Assembly (NCBI GenBank): GCA_017398585.1
Contig: JAFQFS010000159.1
Coordinates: 1 to 34,568 of the forward strand
Reading direction: 5' to 3'
DNA: 34,568 bases
DNA from: Clostridia bacterium
GTDB lineage: Bacteria > Bacillota > Clostridia > Oscillospirales > CAG-272
Shown here: positions 3,837 through 34,440 of the stretch, one piece after another
Numbering within the stretch: position 1 is the first letter of the stretch
Layout of the letters: each line of letters opens with the position of its first letter
The notes under the pieces: generated by a model
The model's database searches: none
What the model was told of the DNA's origin: nothing
Seen by the model: only the letters and a program-made list of their open reading frames with translations
Position numbers and translations under genes: made by a program

Positions 3837-3890
3837 GAGGGGAACCTTTTCAGAGGAAAGGTTCCCCTCAAACTCCCCTCCAAACCTCTT
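3837..3890 (+). repeat. Intergenic hairpin family, copy 1 (diverged)
   Basis: Stem GAGGGGAACCTTT (3837-3849) pairs with AAAGGTTCCCCTC (3857-3869), 22 bases after the ABC exporter stop. The C-rich tail after it (aaactcccctcc) is a diverged form of the family tail. A short GGCTG/CAGCC hairpin follows at about 3891-3903. Confidence 0.7.
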
Positions 3891-3989
3891 TGGGCTGTTG
3901 CAGCCGGTTTGTGTAGTGCAGACTTGCAGTTTTTGGGGGGATTTTTGATGGGTCTGTGCGTAGCCATTTAGTTAGTCCCAGCTGACAAA

Positions 3990-4345
3990 ATGTGTGCGAT
4001 CCAAAGCCTGAGGAAGGGTGGAGACGGAAGTCAGGGGCCACCGAGACCCTGACTTCCCACGCCGTATAGGCTAACCTTGATTTCGTGCGAAGGAGAGAAA
4101 GCTCTCTACGTTGAGCAACTGCCTGCTCGGCTTGGCTGTCGCCGTCCTCGCTTCTGTCAGTTCTGTCGGCTGACATCAAGTTTCAACAAACGCAAAGCAC
4201 GAACGGCGGTAGCCAAGGAGTGCGGTGTTATACTTAAAGTAGCTGAATTCTATAAGGGCGCACTGAATCGAGGTTACGGAAGTGCCGAGCGCTGAACAAA
4301 ACGGAGTTTTGTGAAGTCGCTCCATTATTCCTCATGTTTTTTATA
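3990..4345 (+). ncRNA. Candidate structured non-coding RNA, family unknown
   Basis: No credible gene, but dense pairing. Perfect 11-bp stem GGAAGTCAGGG (4026-4036)/CCCTGACTTCC (4047-4057). GAGAG/CTCTC near 4093-4106. GAGC/GCTC near 4113-4128. A 15-bp helix CTTGGCTGTCGCCGT (4131-4145)/ACGGCGGTAGCCAAG (4203-4217), with TGTCAG/CTGACA (4155-4160/4170-4175) inside. AGTGCG/CGCACT (4219-4224/4259-4264) around TTATA/TATAA. Finally GAGCG…CGCTC around ACAAAAC/GTTTTGT (4287-4322), then T6 at 4337-4342, which looks like a terminator. The long helix contains tandem G-U pairs that exist only in plus-strand RNA. I found no group II intron domain V. A 5' GTGTGCG near 3992 is suggestive only. It could be a solo mobile-element RNA or an independent ncRNA. 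Confidence 0.5.
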
Positions 4346-4446
4346 CCTCCACGGCTATCGCCTGAACAAATTTCAGCCGTACTCCACCGAAAATTCCCCC
4401 TTTTCCCCCCACTAAATCATATCAGCTGCAAAATCCGGCTACAACA

Positions 4447-4485
4447 GATTAAAGTTCTTTGCGGAGCTTTCTTTCAAGAAAGCGA
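4447..4485 (+). repeat. Possible remnant of the intergenic hairpin family
   Basis: The segment attaaagttctttgcgg is followed by an 8-bp hairpin GCTTTCTT/AAGAAAGC (4466-4483). This matches the order of parts in the family (AAAGTTTTTTG box, then palindrome), with a different stem. A box AAACGATTTGCAC (4501-4513), also found beside the copy at 19801, lies just downstream. Confidence 0.4.
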
Positions 4486-4530
4486 CCGTTCCCCTTTCAC
4501 AAACGATTTGCACTTTTTTCCCCTAAAGCA

Positions 4531-4559
4531 TTGCGAAAACGTGCAAATTAAGCTATAAT
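4531..4559 (+). promoter_or_regulatory. Sigma-A promoter of radA
   Basis: TTGCGA (4531-4536), a 17-base spacer and TATAAT (4554-4559). Transcription should start near 4566. This argues against the ATG at 4568 and for the ATG at 4595 as the radA start. Confidence 0.8.
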
Positions 4560-4594
4560 AAACAATAATGAAGAAAAGAATCGGAGAACCACAG

Positions 4595-5989
4595 ATGAAA
4601 GCCCCAAAGACCGTGTTCGTATGCAGCGAATGTGATTATCAGAGTTCGAAATGGCTCGGCAAATGCCCGCAGTGCAATGCGTGGAATACGTTTGTTGAGG
4701 AGATGTACGCCTCTCCGGCGAAGGTTTCCGCCGGTTCGAATTCGCCGACACGTGCGGCGGCATCCACGCCGGAACAGAGCCGCGCGGTGAAGTTCAACGA
4801 GTTTGAAATTCCCGAATATCTGCGGCACAGTACGGGTATCGGCGAGCTTGACCGTGTTCTCGGCGGCGGACTGGTTGAAGGTTCGGTTATCCTTCTTGCC
4901 GGGGAACCCGGCATCGGCAAGTCCACGCTGCTGATGCAGCTGTGCGGGCAGCTCGGGAATTCCTGCAAGGTCCTGTATGCGTCCGGGGAAGAGTCCAAGG
5001 GGCAGCTCAAGATGCGTGCCGACCGTCTCGAAGTCAACGCGGAGTTTCTCTATGTCCAGACCGAGACCAACATTGCGCACATCCTTGCCGAATATGACAA
5101 GATCAAGCCCGATATCGTCATCGTTGACTCCATCCAGACCATCTATTCCGACGAGCTTACCTCCACGGCGGGCAGTGTCACACAGGTGCGTGAATGTTCG
5201 TCCCTGCTCATCAACCGCGCGAAAACCGACGGTGCGGCGGTGCTGATCGTCGGTCATGTCAACAAAGAGGGAGGCATTGCCGGACCGAAGGTGCTCGAGC
5301 ATATGGTTGACGCGGTGCTGTATTTCGAGGGTGACCGCCGTCAGCCGCACCGGATCGTGCGTGCCATCAAAAACCGTTTCGGCTCTACCAACGAGATTGG
5401 CGTGTTCGAAATGGCGGAACACGGGCTGGAAGAAGTTGCAAATCCGTCCGCGATGCTGCTGGAAGGACGTCCCACCGGTGTCAGCGGAAGCTGTGCCGTC
5501 TGTATCATGGAGGGGACGCGTCCCCTGATTGCGGAAATTCAGGCGCTCGTCACACCGACGGTGTTTCCCGCGCCCAGACGTACCGCAAACGGCATCGATT
5601 ACAACCGGATGTGCCTGCTTCTCGCCGTCCTTGAAAAGCGGCTCGGACTTAAATTTTCGACCTGTGACGTATATCTCAATGTTATCGGCGGACTGCGGCT
5701 CGACGAGCCTGCGGTCGACGCGGCGGCGTGCCTCGCGATGATTTCGTCTCTCCGTGACATTCCCGTGCCGGATGACGTGATCGCTTTCGGCGAAGTCGGT
5801 CTGTCCGGCGAATTCCGCTCGGTCGCGTCGATCGAACAAAGGGTGAACGAGGCGTTCCGTCTCGGATTTACAAAAATCGCCCTGCCGAAGCGGGCTGTTT
5901 TGAAAAACGAGGAAACGCTGAAGGAATCCGGCGCGGAAATCATTCCTCTCAGCGGAATTTACGACGCCATCCGGCTCCTGGTGCAGTGA
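4595..5989 (+). CDS. radA: DNA repair protein RadA
   Basis: RadA (Sms) is a RecA-related, DNA-dependent ATPase that helps process recombination intermediates. At 464 aa it is close to the usual ~455. Seen: a C4 zinc finger (Cys10, 13, 24 and 27 in CSEC…CPQC), Walker A GEPGIGKST (residues 103-111), the RadA-specific KNRFG motif followed by STNEIGVFEM, and the C-terminal Lon-protease-like domain (from about residue 300). The ATG at 4595 is chosen because GGAG lies 8 bases before it. The in-frame ATG at 4568 would be nearly leaderless. A bPH membrane gene follows in the same direction 58 bases downstream. Confidence 0.96.
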   Translation: MKAPKTVFVCSECDYQSSKWLGKCPQCNAWNTFVEEMYASPAKVSAGSNSPTRAAASTPEQSRAVKFNEFEIPEYLRHSTGIGELDRVLGGGLVEGSVILLAGEPGIGKSTLLMQLCGQLGNSCKVLYASGEESKGQLKMRADRLEVNAEFLYVQTETNIAHILAEYDKIKPDIVIVDSIQTIYSDELTSTAGSVTQVRECSSLLINRAKTDGAAVLIVGHVNKEGGIAGPKVLEHMVDAVLYFEGDRRQPHRIVRAIKNRFGSTNEIGVFEMAEHGLEEVANPSAMLLEGRPTGVSGSCAVCIMEGTRPLIAEIQALVTPTVFPAPRRTANGIDYNRMCLLLAVLEKRLGLKFSTCDVYLNVIGGLRLDEPAVDAAACLAMISSLRDIPVPDDVIAFGEVGLSGEFRSVASIEQRVNEAFRLGFTKIALPKRAVLKNEETLKESGAEIIPLSGIYDAIRLLVQ

Positions 5990-6047
5990 CTTTGTACTTG
6001 CAGAAGCGATTCTGTAACTATATTTTACGTTTTTCAGGAGAGACATT

Positions 6048-6533: not shown

Positions 6534-6564
6534 TTTTAATTGATATACCCGAAAGGAACCAATT

Positions 6565-8232
6565 ATGAAACTTCAGGACAAATTCAATCTCTGCGGCATC
6601 GACGACGAGCGCAGCCGCAAGGTGCTTTTCCCGACCCGTGTCGTTCTTACGAAGGGCAAGGTCACCGGAAGCCAGTACCTCACCGACTACAAACCCGCAC
6701 AGGTCGCGATTTACGGCTATCATGACCAGTGTACCCTCGACAACCGGAATTCCACCGAAAATGCAGGTGTTCTCGTGGACTTCGGCCGTGAACTCCACGG
6801 TACCCTTACCGTTTCCGTATGGTCGATGAACGGAAAGTACGCGGACTACACCATCCGCCTCGGCGAAAGCGTTTCCGAAGCGATGACCCCCATCACGGAA
6901 ACCGACAAGAACCCCACGAACGACCACGCGAACCGTGACATCAAGACCGGATCCGGCGCATGGGCATCCAACGAAACCAACGAAAGCGGTTTCCGCTTTG
7001 CGTATGTGGAACTCACCTCTCCGAACATGTTCATGCAGATCCGCTGCATCACCGCGACCCTCGTTTACCGTGACATCGAATACCGTGGCTCCTTCGAGTG
7101 CAGCGATCCCCTGCTCAACACGATCTACGACACTGCCGCCTATACTGCGCATCTGAATATGCAGCGTTACCTCTGGGACGGCATCAAGCGTGACCGTCTC
7201 GTCTGGGCGGGCGACATGAACACCGAACTCGCTACCATCCTCGCCGTTTTCGGTGCGAACGAAGTGGTTCCGAAGTCTCTCGACCTCGTGCGCGATGTAA
7301 CTCCGACCGACGCGTCCATGAACGGCCTGTCCTCCTACAACCTGTGGTGGATGCTCTGCCATTACGAATGGTACATGGGCACCGGTGACTACGACTATCT
7401 CGCCGCGCAGAAGGACTACATCAAAGCACTGATGGAACGCTACATGACCTATGTGGATGAAAACGGCGCGGAAATCCTTCCCGAAGGACGCTTCTTCGAC
7501 TGGCCGACGAACGATCTTCCGAACGAAAAGCACTGCGGTCTGCAGGGTCTGCTCCGTCTGGCGCTCCTGCGCGGCGGCGATATCATGAAGATTCTAGGCG
7601 AAACCGAAACGGCGGCGGAATGCTACATCGCGGCGGACAAGCTCCTCGCGCACAAGCCGGTTCCGACCGCAAAGCAGCCGGCGGCGCTTCTCGCGATCGG
7701 CGGTGTCTGCGAAGCAAAGGAAATGTTTGACAAGGTCATCGGTCCGGGCGGCGCGGCAGGTCTGTCCACGTTCCTCGGCTACTACACTCTCTGCGCGTGC
7801 GCGGAAGCGGGCGAATATGAAGCGGCACTCGACATCATCCGCAATTACTGGGGCAAGATGATCGAAATGGGCGCGACGACGTTCTGGGAAGACTTCAACA
7901 TCGACTGGCTCGACAACGCGGCACCGATCGACGAACCCGTTCCGGAAGGAAAGAAGGATATCCACGGCGACTTCGGTGCATACTGCTACGTCAAGCTGCG
8001 CCACAGCCTCTGCCACGGCTGGGCATCCGGTCCCGCACCGTACCTCGCAGAGAACGTCCTCGGCATCAAGGTCGTCGAACCGGGCTGCAAGAAGATCAAG
8101 TTCGAACCGAACCTCGCCGGACTCGAATGGGCAAAGGGTACCTACCCGACTCCGTACGGCGATATCAAGATCGAAATCACAAAGGACGGCGCATCCTGCA
8201 TCGTTCCCGAAGGCGTTGAGATTGTTAAGTAA
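6565..8232 (+). CDS. GH78-like glycosidase (alpha-L-rhamnosidase family), short form
   Basis: 555 aa without signal peptide, so probably cytoplasmic. An N-terminal beta domain (to about residue 175, including VLVDFGRELHGTLTVSV and GFRFAYVEL) is followed by an (alpha/alpha)6 region. GH78 hallmarks: DGIKRDRLVWAGDM (residues 205-218, the segment supplying acidic residues), GATTFWEDF with Glu442 as candidate base, and SLCHGWASGPAPYL near the C-terminus, then a small C-terminal beta domain. Typical GH78 enzymes are 650-1100 aa. This one lacks the extra N-terminal carbohydrate-binding modules. By family knowledge it would release rhamnose or a related sugar from oligosaccharides, and the exact substrate is unproven. 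AAAGGA precedes the ATG. A family hairpin follows the stop by 11 bases. Confidence 0.82.
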   Translation: MKLQDKFNLCGIDDERSRKVLFPTRVVLTKGKVTGSQYLTDYKPAQVAIYGYHDQCTLDNRNSTENAGVLVDFGRELHGTLTVSVWSMNGKYADYTIRLGESVSEAMTPITETDKNPTNDHANRDIKTGSGAWASNETNESGFRFAYVELTSPNMFMQIRCITATLVYRDIEYRGSFECSDPLLNTIYDTAAYTAHLNMQRYLWDGIKRDRLVWAGDMNTELATILAVFGANEVVPKSLDLVRDVTPTDASMNGLSSYNLWWMLCHYEWYMGTGDYDYLAAQKDYIKALMERYMTYVDENGAEILPEGRFFDWPTNDLPNEKHCGLQGLLRLALLRGGDIMKILGETETAAECYIAADKLLAHKPVPTAKQPAALLAIGGVCEAKEMFDKVIGPGGAAGLSTFLGYYTLCACAEAGEYEAALDIIRNYWGKMIEMGATTFWEDFNIDWLDNAAPIDEPVPEGKKDIHGDFGAYCYVKLRHSLCHGWASGPAPYLAENVLGIKVVEPGCKKIKFEPNLAGLEWAKGTYPTPYGDIKIEITKDGASCIVPEGVEIVK

Positions 8233-8243
8233 ATAGGGATTTC

Positions 8244-8312
8244 TCGGGGGAAACTTTTTTGAAAAAAAGTTTCCCCCGAACCCCTTTCAAAAAACTTTAT
8301 ACTGGGAAAGGA
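8244..8312 (+). repeat. Intergenic hairpin family, copy 2
   Basis: Long stem CGGGGGAAACTTTTTT/AAAAAGTTTCCCCCG (8245-8279) starts 11 bases after the glycosidase stop. The tail CCCCTTTC…ACTTTATACTG and a second arm GGAAAGG follow. That second arm also supplies the AAAGGAG ribosome binding site of the next gene. Confidence 0.9.
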
Positions 8313-8321
8313 GACGGAGTT

Positions 8322-10237: not shown

Positions 10238-10280
10238 AATCTATTGATATCGAATAAATCAAACCTCATTTATCCCCTTG

Positions 10281-10341
10281 TTTAAAGTTTTTTGGAAAGG
10301 GTTCGGGAAAACCTTTTTGCAAAAAGGTTTTCCCGAGAAAC
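10281..10341 (+). repeat. Intergenic hairpin family, copy 3 (in the alaS leader)
   Basis: Box TTTAAAGTTTTTTGGAAAGG precedes a 16-bp stem TCGGGAAAACCTTTTT/AAAAAGGTTTTCCCGA (10303-10336). It lies in reverse orientation relative to the stop-codon copies and ends 31 bases before the alaS start codon. Confidence 0.9.
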
Positions 10342-10367
10342 TTCATTTTATAAGGAGACACACCATC

Positions 10368-13001: not shown

Positions 13002-13015
13002 TTGAATAAAGATAA

Positions 13016-13095
13016 TCGGGGAGGAACTTTTCGAGAAAAGTTCCTCCCCGAACCCCTCTTCCAAAGCTTTCAATCTGGAAGAGGGGGTATTTTTG
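13016..13095 (+). repeat. Intergenic hairpin family, copy 4, with second hairpin acting as terminator
   Basis: First stem TCGGGGAGGAACTTTTC paired with its complement (13016-13051), 14 bases after the alaS stop. The tail forms a second perfect 10-bp stem CCCCTCTTCC (13053-13062)/GGAAGAGGGG (13077-13086). GTATTTTTGTTT follows, so the second hairpin is a likely intrinsic terminator. Confidence 0.88.
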
Positions 13096-17772: not shown

Positions 17773-17791
17773 GTTTATAAAATGAAGTTTT

Positions 17792-17850
17792 TCGGGGAGG
17801 GACTTTTTGCAAAAAGTCCCTCCCCGAGCCCCTCTTCAAAAAACTTTAGA
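17792..17850 (+). repeat. Intergenic hairpin family, copy 6
   Basis: 17-bp stem TCGGGGAGGGACTTTTT with its complement (17792-17827), 19 bases after the lipoprotein stop, followed by the tail CCCCTCTTCAAAAAACTTTA. A separate true terminator comes 16 bases further on. Confidence 0.9.
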
Positions 17851-17865
17851 CGGAATAGATTGACG

Positions 17866-17906: not shown

Positions 17907-17935
17907 TTGACAAATGATTTTTTGTGTGTTATACT
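17907..17935 (+). promoter_or_regulatory. Promoter of the first PLMP-like gene
   Basis: TTGACA (17907-17912), a 17-base spacer and TATACT (17930-17935). It is followed by an ~80-base leader that is repeated before the second paralogue. Confidence 0.85.
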
Positions 17936-18027
17936 GAATTCACGGCAGGGGACGGCACCCATTCCTAAAAAACTGCGCCGTATTCAATTTATCTCATCGA
18001 AAGGGGAGGACACCCATCACAAAAAAC

Positions 18028-18777
18028 GTGAAAATGATTCGTGTATTCGATGAAGCTGGAAACGAAGTCAATCCCACCTACCCGAAACGGGCGCGTGGGT
18101 TAGTGAAACAGGGACGGGCACGCTGGGCAGACGATGCAGACGACGTGATCGTTCTCACATCCTATATACGAGACATGGAAACAGCGTATCCGTCCGATCA
18201 GAATCATATATTGGAGGATACAGAAATGTTTGAAGATACCAATGGAAACGAAGAAATCATCGAAACCGCAGAAGAAACCGAAACCATCGAAGAAACCGGT
18301 CTCCCGCTGAATGAGGAACTGAACCGGCTGTACGGCATTCTCGAAAACATCGACAAAATGGCGATGAACGTAAGCTGCATGGGTCTGTCCCTTCCGGAAG
18401 ACATGAACGGCATGGACAACGAAGGGGTACAGGCGGTCGCCGATGCGATCATGTCGGAAAGCACCCGTCTCCGCCTTCTCGCGGAACAGTATACGGCGAT
18501 GCGCAAACAGACCATCGACCTGATTGACAAGGTCAAGTATTACGCAAGACCGAAACCCAAATCGGACGGGTTTGACGAAGAAGCTCTGATTGTTGAACAG
18601 ATCAACATGAACATGGCATCGTACAAGACGATGTGTCAGTACCTGAACGATCAGCTTCGCTGTTCCAGAATTGGCATGGACGAATACCGTGCCGAGATGG
18701 AAAAGGTGCAGAGCGTTTTCGATTACCGTATGGATCAGCTTCGCGGTGAACTGAACGCGCTGAAGTACGGCGGATAA
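18028..18777 (+). CDS. PLMP/RRXRR-like domain protein, paralogue 1
   Basis: About 249 aa, function unknown. Residues ~3-42 (MIRVFDEAGNEVNPTYPKRA, then RGLVKQGRARW) resemble the N-terminal PLMP/RRXRR module of IscB-type proteins (pattern: G-K-P-L-M-P-T, later LLKEGKAR). No HNH or RuvC motif follows. Residues 60-90 are very acidic, and the rest is helical and coiled-coil-like (LNEELNRLYGILENID). The next gene is a full-length paralogue. The start is doubtful. GTG 18028 and ATG 18034 lie 18 and 24 bases after GGGGAGG. An in-frame ATC at 18016 sits at the position of the paralogue's ATG with ideal spacing, and the TKN sequence after it is conserved. A terminator follows. Confidence 0.7.
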   Translation: MKMIRVFDEAGNEVNPTYPKRARGLVKQGRARWADDADDVIVLTSYIRDMETAYPSDQNHILEDTEMFEDTNGNEEIIETAEETETIEETGLPLNEELNRLYGILENIDKMAMNVSCMGLSLPEDMNGMDNEGVQAVADAIMSESTRLRLLAEQYTAMRKQTIDLIDKVKYYARPKPKSDGFDEEALIVEQINMNMASYKTMCQYLNDQLRCSRIGMDEYRAEMEKVQSVFDYRMDQLRGELNALKYGG

Positions 18778-19743: not shown

Positions 19744-19800
19744 GATTTGCAGAAATCCTATAACAAACGATTTGCACAAACTTCGTCTTCCTTTTTCAGA

Positions 19801-19860
19801 TTGAAGTTTTTTGAAAGGGGTCCGGGGGAAACTTTTTTTCAAAAAAGTTTCCCCCGGAAA
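19801..19860 (-). repeat. Intergenic hairpin family, copy 7
   Basis: 17-bp stem CCGGGGGAAACTTTTTT with its complement (19822-19857), 5 bases after the oxidoreductase stop in gene orientation. The flanking box AACGATTTGCACAAACTTCG (19762-19781) also occurs near copies at 4447 and 22926. Confidence 0.9.
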
Positions 19861-19862
19861 CA

Positions 19863-21041
19863 TTATTTCCTCGGATTCATCTTTTTCCCGATCGCGCATG
19901 GGAGGGTTACATTGCCGTTTTCGTTCGGGAACGGGGTGAGAACGTCGTCGCGTACCTTGTTTCGTTCTTCCGGATTCGTGAAGTCGGGAATATAGTACGT
20001 CTTTCCGTCTTCCATGCAGCTGCGCCATGCAAGGATGCCGACCGCCGACATCGCGCATCCACGGTAGACATTGAAGAACGGTTCGACGTCGTTCACGATG
20101 TAGTCCACGAAATTGCGTACCATCCAGTAGTCGCCGCCGCCGTGTCCGGTCTTCGCCGCTTCCGCATGGGATTCCGGTGCGTACGTTTCGCTCTGCGGCT
20201 TTCCTTCCGGCGTCGTCCAGCTGTGGTAGGTCACGTTTACCTTGCTGCCGAGGGTGCGTCCGGTTTCCGCGCCGCCGAATTCACCGCAGATGCGGTAGCC
20301 GCTCGGGGAACACATTGCCGTGCATCCCGTGAAGCGGAACAGCGCGCCGTCGTCCGTGATGCAGTTCATCATCGCGAGCGCGTCATAGTTGTGGCGGAAA
20401 TCGTCGTATTCCTCGAGAACGTCCGAGTGCACCGCGAACGCGTTTACCTTCACCGGCATCTGCTTTGTGATATGCATCAGCGGACCGAGTGCGTGCGTCA
20501 CGTAGTACGTCCGCGGCATCCATCCGCGCCAGTGATATTCGCCGGGGGTCAGGCCGCGCAGGTCTTCCTTCGTCGCCGTGTGATTGTACTCGCCTTCCGC
20601 GTACAGGATCCGTCCGAGCGTGCCTTCGCGGTTCAGACGTTCCATTTCAAGCAGCGCCGGACTGAACGGGTAGTTTTCCGCAATCATGTACTTGCATCCC
20701 GTACGTTCCACTGCTTCGCACAGCAGAACGCAGTCGCGCAGCGTCGCGCCGGACGTGCATTCGCTGAAGACGTGGATCCCGCGTTCCATCGCGCGGATCG
20801 CGAATTCCGCATGCTGGTGGAAGTAGTTGCAGAGCAGTACGCCGTCCATCCCACATTCGATGAACTCATCGAAATTTGTGAACTTCAGCACATGTTCCGG
20901 CAGACGTGCCGCTGCCGCGTTCAGCTTGTCCTCGTCCTTGTCGCAGATTGCGTACACTTCCGCGTCGTCCTGTGCATTGATGATGTCCAGAAAACTGCCG
21001 CCTCTCCACAGTCCGAACACACCGAGCTTGATTTTTGCCAT
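19863..21041 (-). CDS. Gfo/Idh/MocA-family oxidoreductase (GH109-like)
   Basis: 392-aa NAD(P)-dependent sugar oxidoreductase or NAD-dependent glycosidase. N-terminal Rossmann fold with GVFGLWRGG (residues 7-15) and CNYFHQH. The family's EKP motif is replaced by Glu94-Cys95-Thr96 (VFSECTSG), so the usual Lys is absent. Other family motifs are MIAENYPFSP, GEYHWRGWMP and GHGGGDYWMVRNF; the last resembles alpha-N-acetylgalactosaminidase-type GH109 members. No signal peptide, so it should be cytoplasmic. AAGGAG lies 8 bases before the ATG. It lies downstream of the ABC genes but behind a terminator-like dyad and its own possible promoter. Reaction and substrate are uncertain. Confidence 0.88.
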   Translation of the reverse strand: MAKIKLGVFGLWRGGSFLDIINAQDDAEVYAICDKDEDKLNAAAARLPEHVLKFTNFDEFIECGMDGVLLCNYFHQHAEFAIRAMERGIHVFSECTSGATLRDCVLLCEAVERTGCKYMIAENYPFSPALLEMERLNREGTLGRILYAEGEYNHTATKEDLRGLTPGEYHWRGWMPRTYYVTHALGPLMHITKQMPVKVNAFAVHSDVLEEYDDFRHNYDALAMMNCITDDGALFRFTGCTAMCSPSGYRICGEFGGAETGRTLGSKVNVTYHSWTTPEGKPQSETYAPESHAEAAKTGHGGGDYWMVRNFVDYIVNDVEPFFNVYRGCAMSAVGILAWRSCMEDGKTYYIPDFTNPEERNKVRDDVLTPFPNENGNVTLPCAIGKKMNPRK

Positions 21042-21082
21042 ATCGTAATCTCCTTCCGGATGATATAAAGTTCAAAAAACAA

Positions 21083-21123
21083 AGGTACAACGAAAACATA
21101 AATCTCGCTGTACCTCTATTATA
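21083..21123 (-). promoter_or_regulatory. Terminator-like dyad with a -10 box, between the DUF4340 and oxidoreductase genes
   Basis: In minus-strand reading, TATAAT (21118-21123) is followed by AGGTACAGCG (21106-21115) pairing with CGTTGTACCT (21083-21092), then TTGTTTTTT. The dyad can end transcription from the DUF4340 gene. Because the -10 box lies against it, it could also be an operator for the oxidoreductase gene. No good -35 box was found. Confidence 0.5.
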
Positions 21124-21130
21124 TAATAGA

Positions 21131-21187
21131 TTGAAGTTTTTTGAAAGGGGGTCGGGGGAAACTTTTTTTCAAAAAAGTTTCCCCCGA
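21131..21187 (-). repeat. Intergenic hairpin family, copy 8
   Basis: 17-bp stem TCGGGGGAAACTTTTTT with its complement (21152-21187), 9 bases after the DUF4340 gene stop in gene orientation. Confidence 0.9.
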
Positions 21188-21196
21188 AAAATCCAT

Positions 21197-22762
21197 TTAG
21201 TTGTGACCGTATGCGTCGACGTCAAGACCTTCAAGGACACGGGAAGTGTCGTTGACGACCTTGTCGACGAGGTCGTTGGTGGTGTAGAATTCGCCGGCAC
21301 CGTTGACGACGACGAAGATCTTACCGGTGCTGAGTTTGTCGGTGGAGCTTGCGTAGTACTCGTAGAACTTGTACTCGAATTCGTCACCGTCGGTATTTTC
21401 GTACGTCATCGTGAGAACGAGACGGTTGTCGTCCGCCATCAGGGCCGCGCGGTCTTCCGCAGAGAGGAGCGCGTATTCCTGATTCGTGATGTTCAGCATC
21501 GTCTTGTAGTATTCACGGAAGTTCTTGACTTCGGCGTTCGGAATTTCCACGCCGCTGTTCATTTCCTTCACGTCGAGAACCGCATTGCCGTCCGCGTCTA
21601 TGTTGTGGGTCAGACGGTAGTCCACGTCAACCTTGTCGTTCTTCAGCGTGATGCGCGCAACCTGCGTGATATTGACAAAGAACGGAGTCGGGAAGATCCA
21701 CGCGAACGTGTCGTCGGAGAGCCAGCCGAGCTTTTCGTTCGATACCTTGCAGATGATGTTGTAGCCGAACAGGTTGGACGCCGCATAGAACGAACCGTCC
21801 TTCTGTTCTTCGGATGCGAAGATGAAGAACTGATAATCTTCAAACGTGTACGCGATCGTGTATGCCGGGTTCGCGAGACCGTACTGTTCGAGTTCCTCTT
21901 CGGTCGGCATGAAGCATTCGACGGAGTCGCCTTCCAGCGCGATGAAGTTGTACAGGATCTGGAAGTAGAGATTGTCGTTCGCTTCGTAGTATACGCCGTC
22001 GCCGCCGCCTTCCGGAAGCGGGTAGGTCATCTTGATTTCGGTGATCGCGTCGGGATTCTTCTTCTGATCGTCCGGAACGCGCTGGATGTGAACGAACAGG
22101 TCTTCGCCGTGCCATACGGAGAAGTTGTCCGCGAAGAAGTAGTCGTTCTGGGACATGCCCGCGGTCAGCAGGGGCTTCAGAAGAACCTTCGCCGGCTGCA
22201 GGATCGTGGATTCGAGGGTGTTGCTGACGATGTACGCCGCATCACGGTCCGCATACTTGACGTAATAGCCGCCTTCAGTCACGAGTGCATCGCCGACGTA
22301 CATCGTGAACTTTTCTCCGAGGGTGGAGGTGACCGTCCAGGAAGCCTGCGGATCGTCAAGACCGTATTCCGCGAGCTGTTCGGGCGTCAGGTCGGTCGCC
22401 ACACGCATCATCGCGGTCGGTGTACCGGAGGAAACGACCAGACTGGAGAAAACTTCGGGGTCAAAGGTCAGTCCGGGGCAGCCTTCGAGCTGGAACGTGT
22501 CGGACGCATCACGGTAAACTTTGTATCCGCCGTGTTCGTTCGTGACTTCAATGGACTGAATTTCCGAACGTTCGAGCGGATCGAAAATGTAGATGTTGGT
22601 GGTCTTCGCCGTCACCTGAACTTCGCCGGGAAGCAGTTCCTGCGTCACCGTACCGTCATCCTCAACCGCAGTCAGCGGACGGATCACGGCAAAATACGCA
22701 ATGACCATGACAACGAACAGCACACCAAAAATAATAATAAGCTGTTTCTGTTTCTTAATCAT
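21197..22762 (-). CDS. DUF4340 domain-containing membrane-anchored protein
   Basis: 521 aa. One N-terminal membrane anchor (KQLIIIFGVLFVVMVIAYFAVI), the rest probably extracytoplasmic. DUF4340-type features: an early IYIFDPLERSEIQSIEVTNE segment, then repeated units with LTPEQLAEYGLDDPQASWTV and TEEELEQYGLANPAYTIAYT. By family knowledge DUF4340 proteins accompany Gld-type ABC exporters, and the order here (ATPase, permease, GldG-like, DUF4340) is the standard one. The start at 22762 is chosen because the upstream extension to 22864 translates a family hairpin; its ribosome binding site is weak (AGAAAG). The precise role is unknown. Confidence 0.85.
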   Translation of the reverse strand: MIKKQKQLIIIFGVLFVVMVIAYFAVIRPLTAVEDDGTVTQELLPGEVQVTAKTTNIYIFDPLERSEIQSIEVTNEHGGYKVYRDASDTFQLEGCPGLTFDPEVFSSLVVSSGTPTAMMRVATDLTPEQLAEYGLDDPQASWTVTSTLGEKFTMYVGDALVTEGGYYVKYADRDAAYIVSNTLESTILQPAKVLLKPLLTAGMSQNDYFFADNFSVWHGEDLFVHIQRVPDDQKKNPDAITEIKMTYPLPEGGGDGVYYEANDNLYFQILYNFIALEGDSVECFMPTEEELEQYGLANPAYTIAYTFEDYQFFIFASEEQKDGSFYAASNLFGYNIICKVSNEKLGWLSDDTFAWIFPTPFFVNITQVARITLKNDKVDVDYRLTHNIDADGNAVLDVKEMNSGVEIPNAEVKNFREYYKTMLNITNQEYALLSAEDRAALMADDNRLVLTMTYENTDGDEFEYKFYEYYASSTDKLSTGKIFVVVNGAGEFYTTNDLVDKVVNDTSRVLEGLDVDAYGHN

Positions 22763-22794
22763 ATCAAATAACGTCTTTCTTGGTTGAAAATTTA

Positions 22795-22856
22795 TCGGGG
22801 AGGGACTTTTTACAAAAAGTCCCTCCCCGAACCCCTCTTCAAAAACTTTTATACGA
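22795..22856 (+). repeat. Intergenic hairpin family, copy 9
   Basis: 17-bp stem TCGGGGAGGGACTTTTT with its complement (22795-22830), and tail CCCCTCTTCAAAAAC. Relative to the minus-strand DUF4340 gene it is a leader copy that ends 32 bases before the start codon. Confidence 0.9.
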
Positions 22857-22873
22857 ATAAACAAGCAGCGTGC

Positions 22874-22986
22874 AGTGCAAATCTATAACGAACGGTCTGC
22901 ACAAACTCTGTTAATCCATTTCGTATAAAGCTTTTTGAAAGGGGTTCGGGGAAAACTTTTTCTCGAAAAAGTTTTCCCCGAGAAAC
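22874..22986 (-). repeat. Intergenic hairpin family, copy 10, with accessory hairpin
   Basis: 17-bp stem TCGGGGAAAACTTTTTC with its complement (22946-22981), 15 bases after the GldG-like gene stop in gene orientation. Further downstream an accessory hairpin GTGCAGA/TTTGCAC occupies 22874-22901; its T tract is weak. Confidence 0.87.
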
Positions 22987-22996
22987 ATCATTTCTA

Positions 22997-25213: not shown

Positions 25214-25243
25214 TGGTGTAAACTCTCTTTTGTGTTGATTTTT

Positions 25244-25346
25244 CGCGGGAAAACCTTTTTGCAAAAAGGTTTTCCCGCACCCTTTCCAAAAAACGTTATA
25301 CTGGGAAAGGGGTGGGGAAGTGCAGATTTTTCGTTTGGTCTGCACT
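25244..25346 (+). repeat. Intergenic hairpin family, copy 11 (full three-hairpin form)
   Basis: First stem GCGGGAAAACCTTTTT with its complement (25245-25278). Second stem CCCTTTCC (25280-25287)/GGAAAGGG (25304-25311). Third stem GTGCAGA (25320-25326)/TCTGCAC (25339-25345) before a T-rich run. Relative to the minus-strand permease gene the first stem ends 31 bases before the start codon. Confidence 0.9.
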
Positions 25347-25366
25347 GTACCTTGTTTTTTACATAG

Positions 25367-25426
25367 TTTGAAAGTTTTTGCGGAGGGGTCCGGGGAGGTG
25401 CTTTTTTCAAAAAGCATCTCCCCGGG
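25367..25426 (-). repeat. Intergenic hairpin family, copy 12
   Basis: Stem CCGGGGAGGTGCTTTTTT with AAAAAGCATCTCCCCGG (25390-25425), 13 bases after the ATPase stop in gene orientation. One stem position is G-U on the plus strand and A-C on the minus strand. Confidence 0.87.
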
Positions 25427-25438
25427 AAGAAAATTGAC

Positions 25439-26374
25439 TTATCTTCCCATGTCCATGATCTTGATGAAGACTTCTTCGAGGTTCATGCCGAGAGGTTCCA
25501 TGCCGATCATGGGGTAGTTCTTTTCACTGAGTACGTAGAAGACGGGTTTGCGGATGTCCACGCCCTTTTCCGCTTCAACGATGTAGGTGTAGCTGTCGAG
25601 TTCACGTTCGCCGGTCAGTTCCACGGAGATAACGCCCGGGATTTCCTGGAGGAGATTCTGGATCTCTCTCTGCGGACCGCAGATCTTGAGGCTGTAGCGG
25701 CGGTTTTCTTCCACCACGCGGGTGATGTTTTCCGTGCGTTCGTCCGCGATGATCTTGCCTTCGTTGATGATGATGATGCGGTCGCAGACGGACTGTACTT
25801 CGGAGAGGATGTGCGTCGAGAGAATGACGGTGTGGCTCTGACCGAGGTTTCGGATGAGGTTGCGGATCTCGATGATCTGCTTGGGGTCAAGACCGACGGT
25901 CGGTTCGTCAAAGATGATGACCGGCGGGTTGCCGACGAGTGCCTGCGCGATGCCGACACGCTGCTTGTAACCCTTCGAGAGGTTCTTGATCAGACGGTTC
26001 TTGACGTCTTCAATCTTCGTTACCTGACGGATTTCGGCGATGTGGCGTTCGCGGTTGAGCTTGCAGCCCTTGATCTCGTAAACGAAGTTCAGGTATTCGT
26101 TTACCGTCATGTCGATGTAGAGCGGGGGCTGTTCCGGAAGGAAGCCGATCAGCTTCTTCGCTTCGTTCGGGTTTTCGAGAATGTCAATGCCGCCGACCTT
26201 CGCTTCACCCGAGGTGGAAGAGAGATAGCCGGTCAGGATGTTCATCGTGGTCGACTTGCCCGCGCCGTTCGGCCCGAGGAAGCCCACGATCTCGCCCTTG
26301 CCGACCTTGAAGCTGATGTCGTCAACGGCGAACTTGGTGCCATAGTTTTTTACCAGATTGTTTATTTCAATCAT
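25439..26374 (-). CDS. ABC transporter ATP-binding protein (GldA-like)
   Basis: 311 aa from ATG 26374 (MIEINNLVKNYG). Walker A GPNGAGKST (residues 34-42), Q-loop FLPEQPPLY, signature LSKGYKQRVGIAQAL, Walker B VIIFDEPTVGLDP, switch His in ILSTHILSEV. The C-terminal ~80 residues form the regulatory extension seen in ABC-2 exporters (SLKICGPQREIQNLLQEI to EEVFIKIM). Start choice is open: 26374 has GGAGG at 14 bases, 26386 has it at only 2, and 26407 has none. It energises the adjacent permease, GldG-like and DUF4340 components. The family copies between these genes suggest separate mRNA processing or partial termination within the cluster (inference). Confidence 0.93.
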   Translation of the reverse strand: MIEINNLVKNYGTKFAVDDISFKVGKGEIVGFLGPNGAGKSTTMNILTGYLSSTSGEAKVGGIDILENPNEAKKLIGFLPEQPPLYIDMTVNEYLNFVYEIKGCKLNRERHIAEIRQVTKIEDVKNRLIKNLSKGYKQRVGIAQALVGNPPVIIFDEPTVGLDPKQIIEIRNLIRNLGQSHTVILSTHILSEVQSVCDRIIIINEGKIIADERTENITRVVEENRRYSLKICGPQREIQNLLQEIPGVISVELTGERELDSYTYIVEAEKGVDIRKPVFYVLSEKNYPMIGMEPLGMNLEEVFIKIMDMGR

Positions 26375-27425: not shown

Positions 27426-27450
27426 ACCCAACTTCGTCAATTCATTTGTT

Positions 27451-27507
27451 TAAAGTTTTTGGAAAGGGGTTCGGGGAAAACTTTTTTTCAAAAAAGTTTT
27501 CCCCGAG
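27451..27507 (-). repeat. Intergenic hairpin family, copy 13
   Basis: 17-bp stem TCGGGGAAAACTTTTTT with its complement (27471-27506), 10 bases after the gpmI stop in gene orientation. The tail box AAAGTTTTTGGAAAGGGG and a GACGAAGT-like box follow before the terminator. Confidence 0.92.
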
Positions 27508-27516
27508 AAACCTCAT

Positions 27517-29163
<1,647 letters not shown>

Positions 29164-30610: not shown

Positions 30611-30639
30611 TTTACTTTTTTCATATAATGATATATAAT
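30611..30639 (+). promoter_or_regulatory. Promoter of the cysE-CPBP-cysS operon
   Basis: TTTACT (30611-30616), a 17-base spacer and TATAAT (30634-30639). The T-box leader begins immediately downstream. Confidence 0.8.
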
Positions 30640-30646
30640 ACAGAAC

Positions 30647-30915
30647 AGGTAAATATCCCACAGGACGCTGAACGGAAAGAAACAGAGGTTCCGTCGGGCG
30701 AAAGAGAGTGCTGTCACCGGCTGAAAGCAGCATGCCTGATTCTCTGATGTGCATCCGTGAGTCCGAATGAGACATTTTTTCGGCATGTCTCTTCCGCTGC
30801 CCGCGTTACCCGGCTTTTGAGTGATAAATCAGAGTGGAACCGCGTATTACGCCTCTGTCACGCCGATGTGCAAAGTTTTTCAGCTTTCCTGCGGCGGACG
30901 GAGACTTTTTTATTT
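30647..30915 (+). promoter_or_regulatory. T-box riboswitch sensing tRNA-Cys
   Basis: Stem I base: GGAC/GTCC (30663-30666/30761-30764), ACGGA/TCCGT (30672-30676/30754-30758) and CAGAG/CTCTG (30683-30687/30742-30746). The specifier loop between the last two contains TGC (30750-30752), a Cys codon, followed by the usual purine. Stem III: GAGACAT/ATGTCTC (30769-30791). Antiterminator: CAGAG…CTCTG and GCGT/ACGC enclosing the 7-base bulge TGGAACC (30830-30857). UGGA in the bulge complements the U73 discriminator expected in tRNA-Cys. The competing terminator pairs 30853-30865 with 30892-30903 and ends in T6. Uncharged tRNA-Cys should therefore switch on the cys genes. Confidence 0.93.
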
Positions 30916-30953
30916 TCATACATCCAACATCCAAACATCGAAAGGCTGTCCCT

Positions 30954-31718: not shown

Positions 31719-32755
31719 CCCCCGAACGTCCCCGTACGGGTGCCTTTTCCGCCGTACTTCACGCGCTGTTTTACGTATTCGTCTTTTTTTCCTGCCAGTA
31801 TGCCGTGACGGCGGGGTACATGATGTCCCTCATGTCCGGTTCGCTGACTTCCGGTTCGTTTGACGAAGCCGCCATGCTGCAGATTGCGGAACAGGTCATC
31901 GGTCAGAGCGTCATGATCGCGCTCATCTCGAACCTGCTTACCATTCTGATCGTCTGCCTCATTCAGACGCTGCGGATGCGCAGTCCGCTGCAGGAATTCA
32001 ACGTGCGGCCCGTGAACCTGATGCGGATCCCGACCTTTCTGCTGTTCGGCGCATCGCTGAACCTCTTCGTCTCCGGCACGCTCTCGTTCCTGCCGCTTCC
32101 CGAAAGCATTCTTGAGGCATTCGAAAACCAGTATGCCGCGCTCTACGGCGACACGCCTCTCGCGGTCGAAATCCTCAGCATTGCTGTCGTCACAGGTATC
32201 ACGGAGGAGATTGTCTTCCGCGGACTCGTGAATTCCCGCCTGTCCCGCGGGCTGCAGACCGGCACCGTCATGATGGTCTCGTCCATTATCTTCGGTCTGG
32301 CACACGGCGCGCTCATCGCGGTCGTGTATTCCGCCCTGCTCGGGCTGGTCTTCTGCCTGCTGTACGAAAAGTTCCGCTCCGTGATTCCGTCCATCCTCGC
32401 GCACGTTGCGTTCAACGCGACGTCCTATCTGCTCGAAGCACTGGACGACCGGTGGGGACTTCCGCTGTATCTCTTCTCGATCGCGGCGGTGCTGTACTGC
32501 ACGTACCGCCTCTTCTTCCGCCGTCCGACGTTCTACGATGTTGCCTCCGACATGGTCGGGGAATACGAACTCCGTGACAACGTGGAACGGGAGATCATCG
32601 GCGAGATCCGCCGGATGCAGGAGGAGGACGACATCTCTCCCGAAGCCCTCGAACGTCTCGCGGAAGCATGGGAGGAAAACGAGCGGAAATACGATCAATA
32701 TCCTCCCACAGACAACAATGACACCACTGACAACGATAACAATACAAAGGAGTAA
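31715..32755 (+). CDS. CPBP-family intramembrane metalloprotease
   Basis: 346 aa with about eight membrane segments. CAAX protease/bacteriocin-processing (Abi) motifs: EEIVFRG (acidic pair plus Arg), FGLAHG and HVAFN supply the metal ligands, so the active site looks intact. A long hydrophilic acidic tail (from about residue 275: EREIIGEIRRMQEEDD, ending in Asn/Asp/Thr-rich low complexity) lies after the last helix. Its start overlaps the cysE stop by four bases and cysS begins 9 bases after its stop, so it is translated within the cysteine operon. Why a membrane protease sits there is unclear. The substrate is unknown. Confidence 0.92.
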   Translation: MTPERPRTGAFSAVLHALFYVFVFFSCQYAVTAGYMMSLMSGSLTSGSFDEAAMLQIAEQVIGQSVMIALISNLLTILIVCLIQTLRMRSPLQEFNVRPVNLMRIPTFLLFGASLNLFVSGTLSFLPLPESILEAFENQYAALYGDTPLAVEILSIAVVTGITEEIVFRGLVNSRLSRGLQTGTVMMVSSIIFGLAHGALIAVVYSALLGLVFCLLYEKFRSVIPSILAHVAFNATSYLLEALDDRWGLPLYLFSIAAVLYCTYRLFFRRPTFYDVASDMVGEYELRDNVEREIIGEIRRMQEEDDISPEALERLAEAWEENERKYDQYPPTDNNDTTDNDNNTKE

Positions 32756-32764
32756 CACATCCCA

Positions 32765-34243
32765 ATGAAACTTTACAACACCCTTACCCATACACGTGAC
32801 GAATTCGTCACCCACGAACCCGGCAAGGTCACGATGTACACCTGCGGCCCGACCGTATACCACTTCGCTCACATCGGCAACCTCCGTTCCTACATCATGG
32901 AAGACATCCTTGAAAAGTATCTCGGCTACGCGGGCTACGACGTCAAGCGCTGCATGAACATCACCGATGTCGGACACCTCTCCAGCGATGCGGACACCGG
33001 CGAAGACAAGATGCTCAAGGGCGCGAAGCGCGAAAAGAAGACTGTCATGGAAATCGCGCAGTTCTACACCGACGCATTCTTCGCGGACTGCGGCAAGCTG
33101 AACATCAAAATTCCGGAAATCGTGGTTCCCGCGACTTCCTACATCCCCGAATTCATCGAAATGGTGCAGGGACTCCTTGACAAGGGCTACGCGTACCTTT
33201 CCGAAGGCAACGTATACTTTGACACCTCCAAGCTCGACGAATACTACGTCTTCAACAAGCAGGACGCGGAAGACCTTGAAGTCGGCGTTCGAGAAGGCGT
33301 GGAAGAAGACACTGCAAAGCGCAACAAGGCGGACTTTGTTCTCTGGTTCACGAAGTCCAAGTTCGAAGACCAGGAACTCAAGTGGGACAGCCCGTGGGGC
33401 ATCGGCTATCCTGGCTGGCACATCGAATGTTCCGCGATCAGCGTGAAGAATCTTGGGGAATACCTCGACCTTCACTGCGGCGGCATTGACAATGCGTTCC
33501 CGCACCACACCAACGAAATCGCGCAGAGCGAAGCGTACCTCGGCCATCCGTGGTGCAAGCAGTGGTTCCACGTTCTGCACCTGAACACCCAGAGCGGAAA
33601 GATGTCCAAGTCCACGGGCGAATTCCTGACCGTTTCCCTGCTCGAAGAAAAGGGCTACAACCCGCTCGTATACCGTCTGTTCTGCCTGCAGTCGCACTAC
33701 AGAAAGTCCCTCGTCTTCTCGTGGGAAGGTATGGACAGCACGAAGACCGCGTACAACAAGCTGATCGCGAAGATTGCGGGTCTGAATCCCGACTCCGCGG
33801 AAGCCGTTGATGAAGAAGCGTTCGTAAACCTGAAGAAGCGCTTCTCAGACGCGATGGACAATGACCTCAACACCGCGCTCGCCGTCACCGCCGTTTACGA
33901 CGTTCTGAAGGCAAAGACGAATGATGCGACCAAGATTGCTCTGCTGAAGGATTTCGACACGGTTCTTTCCCTGAATCTCCTCGAAGAAGCGGCAAAGGTA
34001 CGCGAAGCGAACAAAAAGGCAGCGGAAGCGGCAAAGAACGCACCGGCAGCAGCTCTCGTGATCACCTGCACGACCGAAGGCGTGGATGCAGAAACCACCG
34101 CGAAAGTGGAAGCACTCATCAATGACCGTGCGGCGGCAAAGAAGGCAAAGGACTTTGCAAAGGCCGACGCGATCCGCGACGAACTGACCGCAATGGGCAT
34201 CACCATCGTCGACGTCAAGGGCGGCGTGAACTGGAGCAAGTGA
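32765..34243 (+). CDS. cysS: Cysteine-tRNA ligase
   Basis: Charges tRNA-Cys. 492 aa, slightly longer than the usual ~465. Class I motifs: HIGN (HIGH box, residues 36-39) and KMSKS (279-283). Zinc ligands: Cys27 (YTCGPT), the Cys in GWHIECSA, and His/Glu in HHTNEIAQSE. The DALR domain is near residues 345-400, followed by an Ala/Lys-rich linker (KKAAEAAKNAPAAA) and a conserved C-terminal helix pair (KKAKDFAKADAIRDEL). The linker accounts for the extra length. It is third in the T-box operon, which fits the Cys specifier. A family hairpin and bidirectional terminator follow. Confidence 0.97.
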   Translation: MKLYNTLTHTRDEFVTHEPGKVTMYTCGPTVYHFAHIGNLRSYIMEDILEKYLGYAGYDVKRCMNITDVGHLSSDADTGEDKMLKGAKREKKTVMEIAQFYTDAFFADCGKLNIKIPEIVVPATSYIPEFIEMVQGLLDKGYAYLSEGNVYFDTSKLDEYYVFNKQDAEDLEVGVREGVEEDTAKRNKADFVLWFTKSKFEDQELKWDSPWGIGYPGWHIECSAISVKNLGEYLDLHCGGIDNAFPHHTNEIAQSEAYLGHPWCKQWFHVLHLNTQSGKMSKSTGEFLTVSLLEEKGYNPLVYRLFCLQSHYRKSLVFSWEGMDSTKTAYNKLIAKIAGLNPDSAEAVDEEAFVNLKKRFSDAMDNDLNTALAVTAVYDVLKAKTNDATKIALLKDFDTVLSLNLLEEAAKVREANKKAAEAAKNAPAAALVITCTTEGVDAETTAKVEALINDRAAAKKAKDFAKADAIRDELTAMGITIVDVKGGVNWSK

Positions 34244-34258
34244 AATTAAATAAATTAA

Positions 34259-34330
34259 GCGGGGAAAACCTTTTTTGAAAAAAAGGTTTTCCCCGCACCC
34301 CTTTCCAAAAAACTTTATACTGGGAAAGGG
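34259..34330 (+). repeat. Intergenic hairpin family, copy 14
   Basis: Stem GCGGGGAAAACCTTTTTT with its complement (34259-34296), 15 bases after the cysS stop. Second stem CCCTTTCC/GGAAAGGG (34299-34330) encloses AAAAAACTTTATACT, nearly as in copies 2 and 11. Confidence 0.92.
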
Positions 34331-34337
34331 ATAAAAG

Positions 34338-34380
34338 AGAGAGTGCAGATTTCAAGATGAAAAATTTGCACTCTCTTTGT
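34338..34380. terminator. Bidirectional terminator between cysS and the convergent gene
   Basis: AGAGAGTGCA (34338-34347)/TGCACTCTCT (34367-34376), followed by TTGTTATTT on the plus strand. On the minus strand TTTTATCCC follows. It lies between family copies 14 and 15. Confidence 0.8.
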
Positions 34381-34393
34381 TATTTATATTCGT

Positions 34394-34440
34394 TTAAAGT
34401 TTTTGAAGAAGGGTGAAGACTTGCGGAGCAAGTCTTCACC
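34394..34440 (-). repeat. Intergenic hairpin family, copy 15 (different stem)
   Basis: Box TTTAAAGTTTTTGAAGAAGG precedes a perfect 13-bp stem GGTGAAGACTTGC/GCAAGTCTTCACC (34412-34440). The stem sequence is unlike the other copies but the order and place are the same: 11 bases after a stop codon in gene orientation. Confidence 0.8.

What the first reader, a model, noticed from the sequence alone, without database searches (positions are those of the whole stretch)
3837..34440. Family of about 15 intergenic hairpins with compensating stem changes
Copies at 3837, 8244, 10281, 13016, 17792, 19801, 21131, 22795, 22926, 25244, 25367, 27451, 34259 and 34394, plus remnants at 4447 and 15902, share one plan: AAAGTTTTTTG box, GAAAGGGG, then a 13-18 bp near-perfect palindrome. 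The stems differ (GGGGGAAAC, GGGAAAACC, GGGAGGGAC, GGGGAGGTGC, GGTGAAGAC) while both arms change together. Compensating change implies that pairing is maintained. I know of no named family with this layout.
Basis: seen in the sequence. Interest (0 to 1): 0.78.

Follow-up and report, generated by a model that had tools for sequence, protein, structure and literature searches.

The report
Three-strand DNA hairpin repeat family
An uncultured gut bacterium carries well over a hundred small DNA hairpins between its genes, each followed by a matching third strand that changes together with both hairpin arms, which suggests that the DNA can fold into a triple helix and that evolution keeps it so.

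Summary
In detail: 14 hairpins and 2 remnants are real and far above chance. They belong to a family with at least 150 copies in this gut Clostridia genome (capped). Both arms change together in 150 aligned copies and at orthologous sites. Two points change the reading. (1) G.U and A.C mismatches are about equally common (44 and 54), so nothing points to selection for a plain RNA hairpin. It covaries with the stem like the third strand of an intrastrand triplex: mirror order, 3-nt linker, one nucleotide shorter than the arm in 265 of 292 parsed copies, 0 of 2000 permutations. The relation recurs in sampled loci of three other same-genus genomes (0 of 5000). An unsupervised triplex scan finds 13 of the 14 copies and 124 sites in 797 kb against 0 in a simulated control. 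The closest known kind is BoxC/PIT/TM-ECO; this variant has a long composite stem that published loop limits miss. Copies sit between stop and start codons, form facing doublets and differ in presence between relatives. Fold in vivo, mobility and function are inferred.

The parts
3834..3893 (+). divergent copy: hairpin 3834-3872, third-strand block from 3873
   Evidence: 45 bits; class I scan hit 3837-3880 on minus strand
8230..8305 (+). element: tail, hairpin 8244-8279, third-strand block from 8280
10277..10350 (-). element upstream of alaS: third-strand block 10281-10302, hairpin 10303-10336
13002..13078 (+). element after alaS stop: hairpin 13016-13051, third-strand block from 13052
17778..17854 (+). 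element: hairpin 17792-17827, third-strand block from 17828; orthologous sites in G022 and G004 carry other stems
19796..19871 (-). element: third-strand block 19801-19820, hairpin 19821-19858
21126..21201 (-). element: third-strand block 21131-21151, hairpin 21152-21187
22781..22995 (.). facing doublet: hairpins 22795-22830 (+) and 22946-22981 (-), boxes inside
25231..25439 (.). facing doublet: hairpins 25245-25278 (+) and 25390-25425 (-); the plus half is absent in both G022 and G004
27445..27520 (-). element: third-strand block 27451-27470, hairpin 27471-27506
34245..34456 (.). facing doublet: hairpin 34259-34296 (+) and 34412-34440 (-, replaced stem that breaks the third-strand rule)
   Evidence: plus half only
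4447..4516 (+). degenerate copy
   Evidence: 26 bits
15896..15939 (-). remnant: box and tail without the hairpin
   Evidence: 31 bits
1651..1689 (-). separate class I triplex motif with 11 triads, within published loop limits; not a family member

Best explanation
The family is a DNA-level dispersed repeat of the intrastrand-triplex kind. Each unit is a 13-18 bp palindrome plus a third strand set off by 3 nt. On the strand that reads AAAGTTTTTTG-AAAGGGG-TTC-GGGGAAAAC-TTTTTT..., the purine block repeats the purine arm in mirror order (G.GC and A.AT triads, antiparallel) and the T run can lie parallel to the A run of the other arm (T.AT triads), so one strand can fold into a triplex that crosses from one arm to the other. 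Units occur singly or as facing doublets and fill the space between a stop codon and the next start. They come and go between close relatives, so the repeat most likely spreads or turns over as a non-autonomous element, and copies are kept or propagated when the three-strand fold is intact. Shown: sequence anatomy, three-way covariation, location, presence/absence. Inferred: that the triplex forms in the cell (on single-stranded DNA at replication forks or during transcription), that it crosses between arms, that it is the propagation signal, and that it acts as a replication or recombination obstacle.
For: Third strand follows the arm: 292 of 352 elements parsed, 50 arm types; length difference exactly 1 in 265 of 292; interior G in the arm goes with interior C in the spacer in 57 of 71, against 2 of 203 without interior G; terminal C run equal in 274 of 292; 0 of 2000 permutations with one spacer per arm type. 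Linker 3 nt in 265 of 284. 23 parsed orthologous site pairs: arm and spacer both changed 17, arm only 1, neither 5. Sampled loci of three other same-genus genomes, 21 distinct purine runs: 0 of 5000 permutations; mean score 1.14 on the box side against 0.12 on the other flank. Unsupervised class I scan: 13 of 14 window copies on the predicted strand; 124, 63 and 59 long-loop hits in G000, G022 and G004 samples against 0, 0 and 0 in Markov controls. G.U not above A.C. All 24 neighbouring pairs in the own sample face each other. Presence/absence: in 43 of 74 comparisons of an own element side with a syntenic relative no element is recognised in the relative; relatives' gaps of 0-61 nt in several examples.
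Against: No structure was measured. The box end also tracks the hairpin loop (G with C 99, GAGG or AAGG with CC 58, CGAG with GC 21), which a third strand along the stem does not explain by itself; there are only about three loop classes. Elements are related by descent, so the permutation tests are anticonservative. Both parsing patterns require a terminal C, which helps the C-run agreement. For the 12 arm types of length 9 the plain complement rule is reached by 49 of 2000 permutations, although the rule with C kept is reached by none. Some arm types are loosely matched, such as GGGGAAACC with CCCCTTCC in 23 of 41. 60 of 352 elements did not parse; some are chance hairpins, some break the rule (34412; one with no spacer block). 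One of ten long purine runs in the other genomes, L267:9351, has a flank that does not fit. 23 of 875 arm A and 14 of 1217 arm G positions aligned to a spacer base are outside the class I code, after an alignment that favours matches. No mobility protein was identified, no target duplication seen at the sites inspected, and no near-identical doublets exist. Markov controls contain no hairpins, so the scan counts show rarity of the whole motif, not of the third strand alone.
Confidence: 0.6

Rival explanations
1. RNA element: the hairpin acts in transcripts as a 3'-end stabiliser, terminator or leader structure, and both-arm changes reflect selection for RNA pairing.
For: Tight position after stop codons: 245 elements, median 14 nt, quartiles 10-18. 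Genes followed by an element carry fewer canonical terminators, 29 of 215 against 209 of 766; convergent only 21 of 69 against 91 of 185, though the element occupies the searched space. A pyrimidine-motif triplex is possible in RNA (PMC4666352).
Against: No excess of G.U over A.C on the transcript strand (44 and 54; after stop codons 31 and 33), although a triplex constraint would also blunt that signal. Same outer tail in front of starts as after stops, and the hairpin side is nearer to the gene in 104 of 122 elements in front of starts. A T-rich stretch follows the stem in only 10 of 352. No Rfam family at gathering score in the window.
Confidence: 0.2
2. REP/REPIN-type element: hairpin doublets mobilised by a Y1 (HUH) transposase acting on single-stranded DNA.
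For: High copy number, intergenic palindromes, 24 of 24 neighbouring pairs in facing orientation, patchy occurrence.
Against: No Y1_Tnp match in the own genome (genome 73.6% complete; 5 of 14 control genomes respond). No GTAG/CGTC tag within 8 nt 5' of the stem in 352 elements and one within 8 nt 3'. Stem sequence is not conserved.
Confidence: 0.1
3. MITE: the 250-bp doublet is a deletion derivative of an unknown DDE transposon, the hairpins being parts of long terminal inverted repeats, and the fold has no role.
For: Doublet is a nested inverted repeat with inner arms GTGCAGATTTG/CAAATCTGCAC; 12 of 24 doublets have inner lengths of 155-158 nt; absent from many orthologous sites.
Against: Each hairpin's third strand matches its own stem, also where the two stems of a doublet differ (22781-22995); no target duplication seen by eye in the inspected empty sites; no near-identical doublets. 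A parent transposon was not searched for beyond Y1_Tnp.
Confidence: 0.2
4. Arm-spacer correlation is a relic: a few subfamilies, each with its own spacer, spread and recombined; homopolymer-length limits do the rest, and arms stay paired by template-switch correction of quasi-palindromes.
For: Strong descent among copies; whole stems are swapped at orthologous sites, as conversion between copies would do; G.U and A.C mismatches about equal.
Against: Template switching is not known to copy in mirror order (recalled). Base-specific matches occur in 14-16 nt mixed purine arms of G008 and G017, and the same rule holds across 50 arm types.
Confidence: 0.2

Closest known systems
BoxC / PIT / TM-ECO intrastrand triplex repeats of E. 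coli and other Proteobacteria (PMC4666352; parts 1-7 of 10 read)
   Same: Third strand, purine arm and pyrimidine arm on one strand; 3-nt linker; intergenic; inverted doublets; copy number differs sharply between close relatives; flanks variable.
   Different: Class I order (third strand first) instead of class II; different sequence (no TM-ECO consensus match in the own genome); stem continues into an A/T block on the other arm, so the loop of the R-Y block is 14-18 nt in the window copies, outside the published 1-6 nt search; stem sequences vary and the third strand varies with them.
REP/BIME/REPIN repeats (PMC3116915, PMC3733652; start of abstracts in a search listing only)
   Same: High-copy intergenic palindromes, often in pairs.
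   Different: No GTAG/CGTC tag at the 5' side, no Y1 transposase found, stem sequence free to vary, third-strand block.
MITEs and intergenic mosaic repeats such as ERIC, RUP, Correia elements (recalled)
   Same: Short inverted-repeat elements in intergenic space, present or absent between relatives.
   Different: No target duplication or parent transposon identified; terminal parts are themselves variable hairpins with matched third strands.

Membership tests
Intrastrand triplex repeat (BoxC/PIT/TM kind) | Third, purine and pyrimidine blocks on one strand obeying the triad code with at most one mismatch | tested here: met
   13 of 14 window copies with the second loop widened; 124 sites in 797 kb against 0 in control
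   With both loops 1-6 nt only 1 window hit, 1651-1689, outside the family; 7 against 124 in 797 kb
Intrastrand triplex repeat (BoxC/PIT/TM kind) | Stable triplex in vitro | not testable with these tools
   Shown for TM-ECO in PMC4666352; not measured here
TM-ECO (BoxC) proper | Consensus CCCTCNCCCN3-6GGGNGAGGGN3GGGNGAGGG | tested here: not met
   0 exact matches in the own genome
REP/REPIN | Y1 (HUH) transposase in the genome | tested here: not met
   PF01797: no match in a 73.6% complete genome
REP/REPIN | GTAG or CGTC tag beside the stem | tested here: not met
   0 of 352 within 8 nt 5', 1 of 352 within 8 nt 3'
MITE | Target-site duplication at insertion | tested here: inconclusive
   None seen by eye in the filled/empty pairs shown; no systematic test
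MITE | Terminal inverted repeats shared with an autonomous transposon | not tested
   Inverted-repeat doublets present; only Y1_Tnp was searched for
Intrinsic terminator | GC stem followed by a T tract | tested here: not met
   5 or more T in the 8 nt after the stem in 10 of 352
Any Rfam family | Score at or above the gathering threshold | tested here: not met
   4 matches up to E 1 in the window, none at threshold

The most novel reading that the evidence does not exclude
A new class of mobile or self-maintaining bacterial repeat whose conserved signal is not a sequence but a three-stranded DNA fold: well over a hundred copies per genome change stem, counter-stem and third strand together, giving comparative evidence that an intrastrand, alternate-strand DNA triplex forms and is selected in living cells.
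Probability: 0.35. Interest if true: 0.9.

Novelty: new variant of a known kind. Interest (0 to 1): 0.72.

Why it matters
Whether DNA triplexes form and matter in bacterial cells is open. For TM-ECO, triplex formation was shown in vitro, in vivo footprinting did not support stable formation, no promoter or terminator activity was seen, and the motif was linked to genome instability (PMC4666352). TM-ECO is highly conserved in sequence, so it offers little covariation. Here the third strand varies with the stem over 50 stem types in three close genomes and again in sampled loci of three other genomes of the genus, which is the kind of evidence that established RNA secondary structures. It gives natural compensated triple mutants to test, and it suggests that loop limits in triplex searches hide such families.

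Tried and rejected
Outer stem between the 5' tail (AAATGAAGTTT) and the box end: no covariation, observed 4.065 against permuted 4.071, 111 of 200 permutations as high. Rejected.

Intrinsic terminator: no T-rich stretch after the stem in 342 of 352. Depletion of canonical terminators at elements is confounded by space and was not used as proof.

Pure RNA reading: not supported by mismatch symmetry.

First count of both-arm changes at orthologous sites (119 both, 15 one-arm, 6 other over 31 site pairs) is inflated by register shifts and includes two pairs that are not family members (site 127 and the right side of site 450); replaced by the parsed count (23 of 31 pairs, 21 distinct own site sides).

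A local-alignment score of stem against flank over all hairpins did not separate cleanly from reversed flanks because of low complexity: in G000, 156 at the lower cut-off against 143 with reversed flanks, and 139 against 64 at the higher one. The permutation tests on parsed units replaced it. A regular expression for hairpin-less remnants matched intact 3' arms and was discarded. Some rows are false elements made by N padding at the ends and were ignored.

Searches for a printed description gave the triplex and REP literature but no report of this family in their listings; the library holds open-licence papers only. One search looked for six literal sequence words and found two unrelated papers.
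Full report
What is there. The window is contig 157 of a 3.18-Mb, 73.6% complete assembly. Its best named matches, by one ABC-transporter protein, are uncultured Clostridia/Oscillospiraceae, many from ruminants. In one orientation the units read: tail like AAATGAAGTTTCTC, stem like CGGGGAAAAC-TTTTT, short loop, counter-stem, 3-nt linker, CCCCTTTC-like block, AAAAA-C-TTT. Seven of the 14 window copies run in the other direction.

How many. A covariance model from nine copies gives 150 scored matches in the own genome, a ceiling of the tool with 2012 candidates, and 302 matches on both strands in 797 kb of it, many of them the same palindrome read twice. My own finder gives 151 strong elements in that 797 kb, no two alike. 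The 41 stretches are the window and pieces of contigs that appeared in the hit lists, so the density is biased upward; even so 7 of the 41 hold none.

Where. Genes were called with a simple codon-usage script, so starts are approximate. Over samples of three genomes, 245 elements follow a stop codon (median 14 nt, quartiles 10-18) and 126 precede a start codon (median 31 nt, quartiles 17-86). The hairpin side is the one nearer to a gene in 327 of 359 cases with a gene on both sides. In the own sample all 24 pairs of neighbours within 260 nt face each other, with inner lengths of 155-158 nt in 12 and further inverted repeats inside.

Both arms change together. On 150 aligned copies (the best of 302 matches, a few being the reverse reading of another) 98.6% of cells pair, 15 of 17 pairs have changes on both sides, and no measure is reached by any of 500 shuffles; the alignment was fitted to the structure, and relatedness is not removed. 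In the parts of G022 and G004 that are syntenic with ours (anchors about 86% identical) the same intergenic site often carries another stem. Of 31 site pairs with an element in both, 23 could be parsed: the arm differs in 18 and is the same in 5.

RNA or DNA. If pairing were kept in RNA, G.U should outnumber A.C among departures. In 371 elements, 5,565 pairs, 180 are not Watson-Crick; on the transcript strand 44 are G.U and 54 A.C. This argues against a plain RNA hairpin. It does not rule out an RNA triplex, in which G.U may be harmful too.

The third strand. The block beside the stem is not constant: GGGGAAAAC goes with CCCCTTTC (49 of 55), GGGGAAAAAC with CCCCTTTTC (25 of 30), GGGAAAACC with CCCTTTCC (10 of 11), GGGGAGGGAC with CCCCTCTTC (8 of 9), GGGGAGATGC with CCCCTCCGC (3 of 3); looser are GGGGAAACC with CCCCTTCC (23 of 41) and GGGGAGAAAC with CCCCTTTTC (9 of 15), where the G has no C. 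The block runs in the same direction as the arm as its complement, which is the Hoogsteen relation, not the Watson-Crick one. Of 352 elements 292 parsed; the 60 left out are listed and include chance hairpins and some family members, a few of which break the rule, 34412 among them. With one spacer per arm type (50 types) no permutation of 2000 reaches the observed agreement. Reverse complement and identity fit far worse in absolute score, though their permutations are also exceeded. Among the 12 arms of length 9 the plain complement is reached by 49 of 2000 and the rule with C kept by none; among the 19 arms of length 10 neither is reached. The block is one nucleotide shorter than the arm in 265 of 292, and the linker is 3 nt in 265 of 284. 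At the orthologous sites arm and spacer changed together in 17 pairs, the arm alone in 1, neither in 5.

Independent check. G008, G017 and G023 have only 46-50% protein identity to the window in one gene. Contigs of G017 taken without regard to hits gave no hairpin with the box in 132 kb, and those of G008 five in 102 kb; loci picked by the model in all three gave more. In G008 and G017 the purine arms are often longer and mixed, and the flank follows them: L270:14064, arm GGGGAGGGAGAAAC..., flank CCCCTCCCTCTTTTC; L265:837, arm GGGGGAGGGGAGAAAC, flank CCCCCTCTCCTCTTC. On 21 distinct purine runs 0 of 5000 permutations reach the observed score, and the other flank of the same palindromes does not fit (0.12 against 1.14). 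In the ten runs of 11 or more purines, G faces C in 63 of 71 aligned positions and A faces T in 48 of 61; one of the ten, L267:9351, does not fit.

Which strand. Read on the strand that starts AAAGTTTTTTG, the block is the third strand of a purine-motif (class I) triplex. Where the spacer departs at an arm A it is A 36 times, C 21 and G 2; A there means a T.AT triad, allowed in the purine motif and not in the pyrimidine motif. Thirty of the 36 lie at the first A after GGGG, so they may reflect few events. The T run beside it can lie parallel to the A run of the other arm, so the fold would cross from arm to arm. That crossing is my inference. The last bases of the box also track the loop, which the model does not explain.

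Unsupervised scan. A class I search with the published loop limits finds one window site, 1651-1689, not a family member. In larger samples with a second loop of 7-22 nt: 124, 63 and 59 sites in 797, 829 and 606 kb of G000, G022 and G004, 6 in 102 kb of G008, 0 in 132 kb of G017, and 2 in 1.36 Mb of the loci; the Markov controls, which hold no hairpins, gave 0 throughout.

Turnover. In 74 comparisons of an own element side with a syntenic relative, 43 show no recognisable element in the relative (degenerate copies below the thresholds count as absent) and 31 do, two of these 31 not being family members; 14 sides have one only in the relative. Examples with small gaps in the relative: 0 nt (TGA directly followed by ATG) against 259, 13 against 84, 14 against 190, 21 against 256. 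Tight operon spacing in the relative makes insertion the simpler direction, but no outgroup was used. The gene at 19863-21041 together with both flanking elements (about 19751-21195) is absent from the G004 contig. No Y1 transposase was found in the own genome, and no target duplication was seen by eye.

Known relatives. The kind is the intrastrand triplex repeat (BoxC, PIT, TM-ECO), described with triplex formation in vitro, inverted doublets, patchy copy number and variable flanks (PMC4666352, parts 1-7 of 10). The present family shares those sequence-level traits, differs in class order, sequence and stem build, and adds three-way covariation, a term that does not occur in that paper's main text. 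I file it as a new variant of that kind. That it forms triplexes in the cell, and that the fold drives its spread, are inferences at about 0.5-0.6 and 0.35.

Noticed in passing
window 1538-1960: A cluster of other strong hairpins, one of which (1651-1689, minus strand) is an 11-triad class I triplex motif within published loop limits.
   Followed up: partly
window 19751-21195: A Gfo/Idh/MocA-type gene with a hairpin element on each side is missing as one block from the syntenic G004 contig.
   Followed up: partly
window 17921-18777: ORF with a weak RRXRR match (Pfam E 5.6e-4, below cut-off) preceded by a strongly conserved region; the stretch also aligns at about 70% to a second place in G022 and G004, suggesting tandem paralogues.
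   Followed up: no
window 30659-30859: T-box leader match (53.8 bits, E 3e-9, below the gathering score of 93) before a hexapeptide-transferase, Rce1-like protease and cysS gene run.
   Followed up: no
window 3895-4322: Stretch between called genes that is 78% identical to L186:13001-13432 (G022), possibly another dispersed repeat.
   Followed up: no
L119-L158, own genome: Elements are unevenly spread: 7 of 41 stretches have none while L135, L119 and L151 have 10-13 in 20 kb. Several empty stretches are little covered by the G022/G004 pieces, but so are the element-rich L119 and L130.
   Followed up: partly
L126:7751-8044, L156:6850-7110, L147:4153-4455, L158:10879-11157: Small foreign hairpins (such as GGAGTTACGAAGTAACCTCC) sit inside one arm of the element stem.
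   Followed up: no
L156:9065-9224: A different hairpin repeat of the GTGAAAT...ATTTCAC type occupies a site where the relative has the present element.
   Followed up: no
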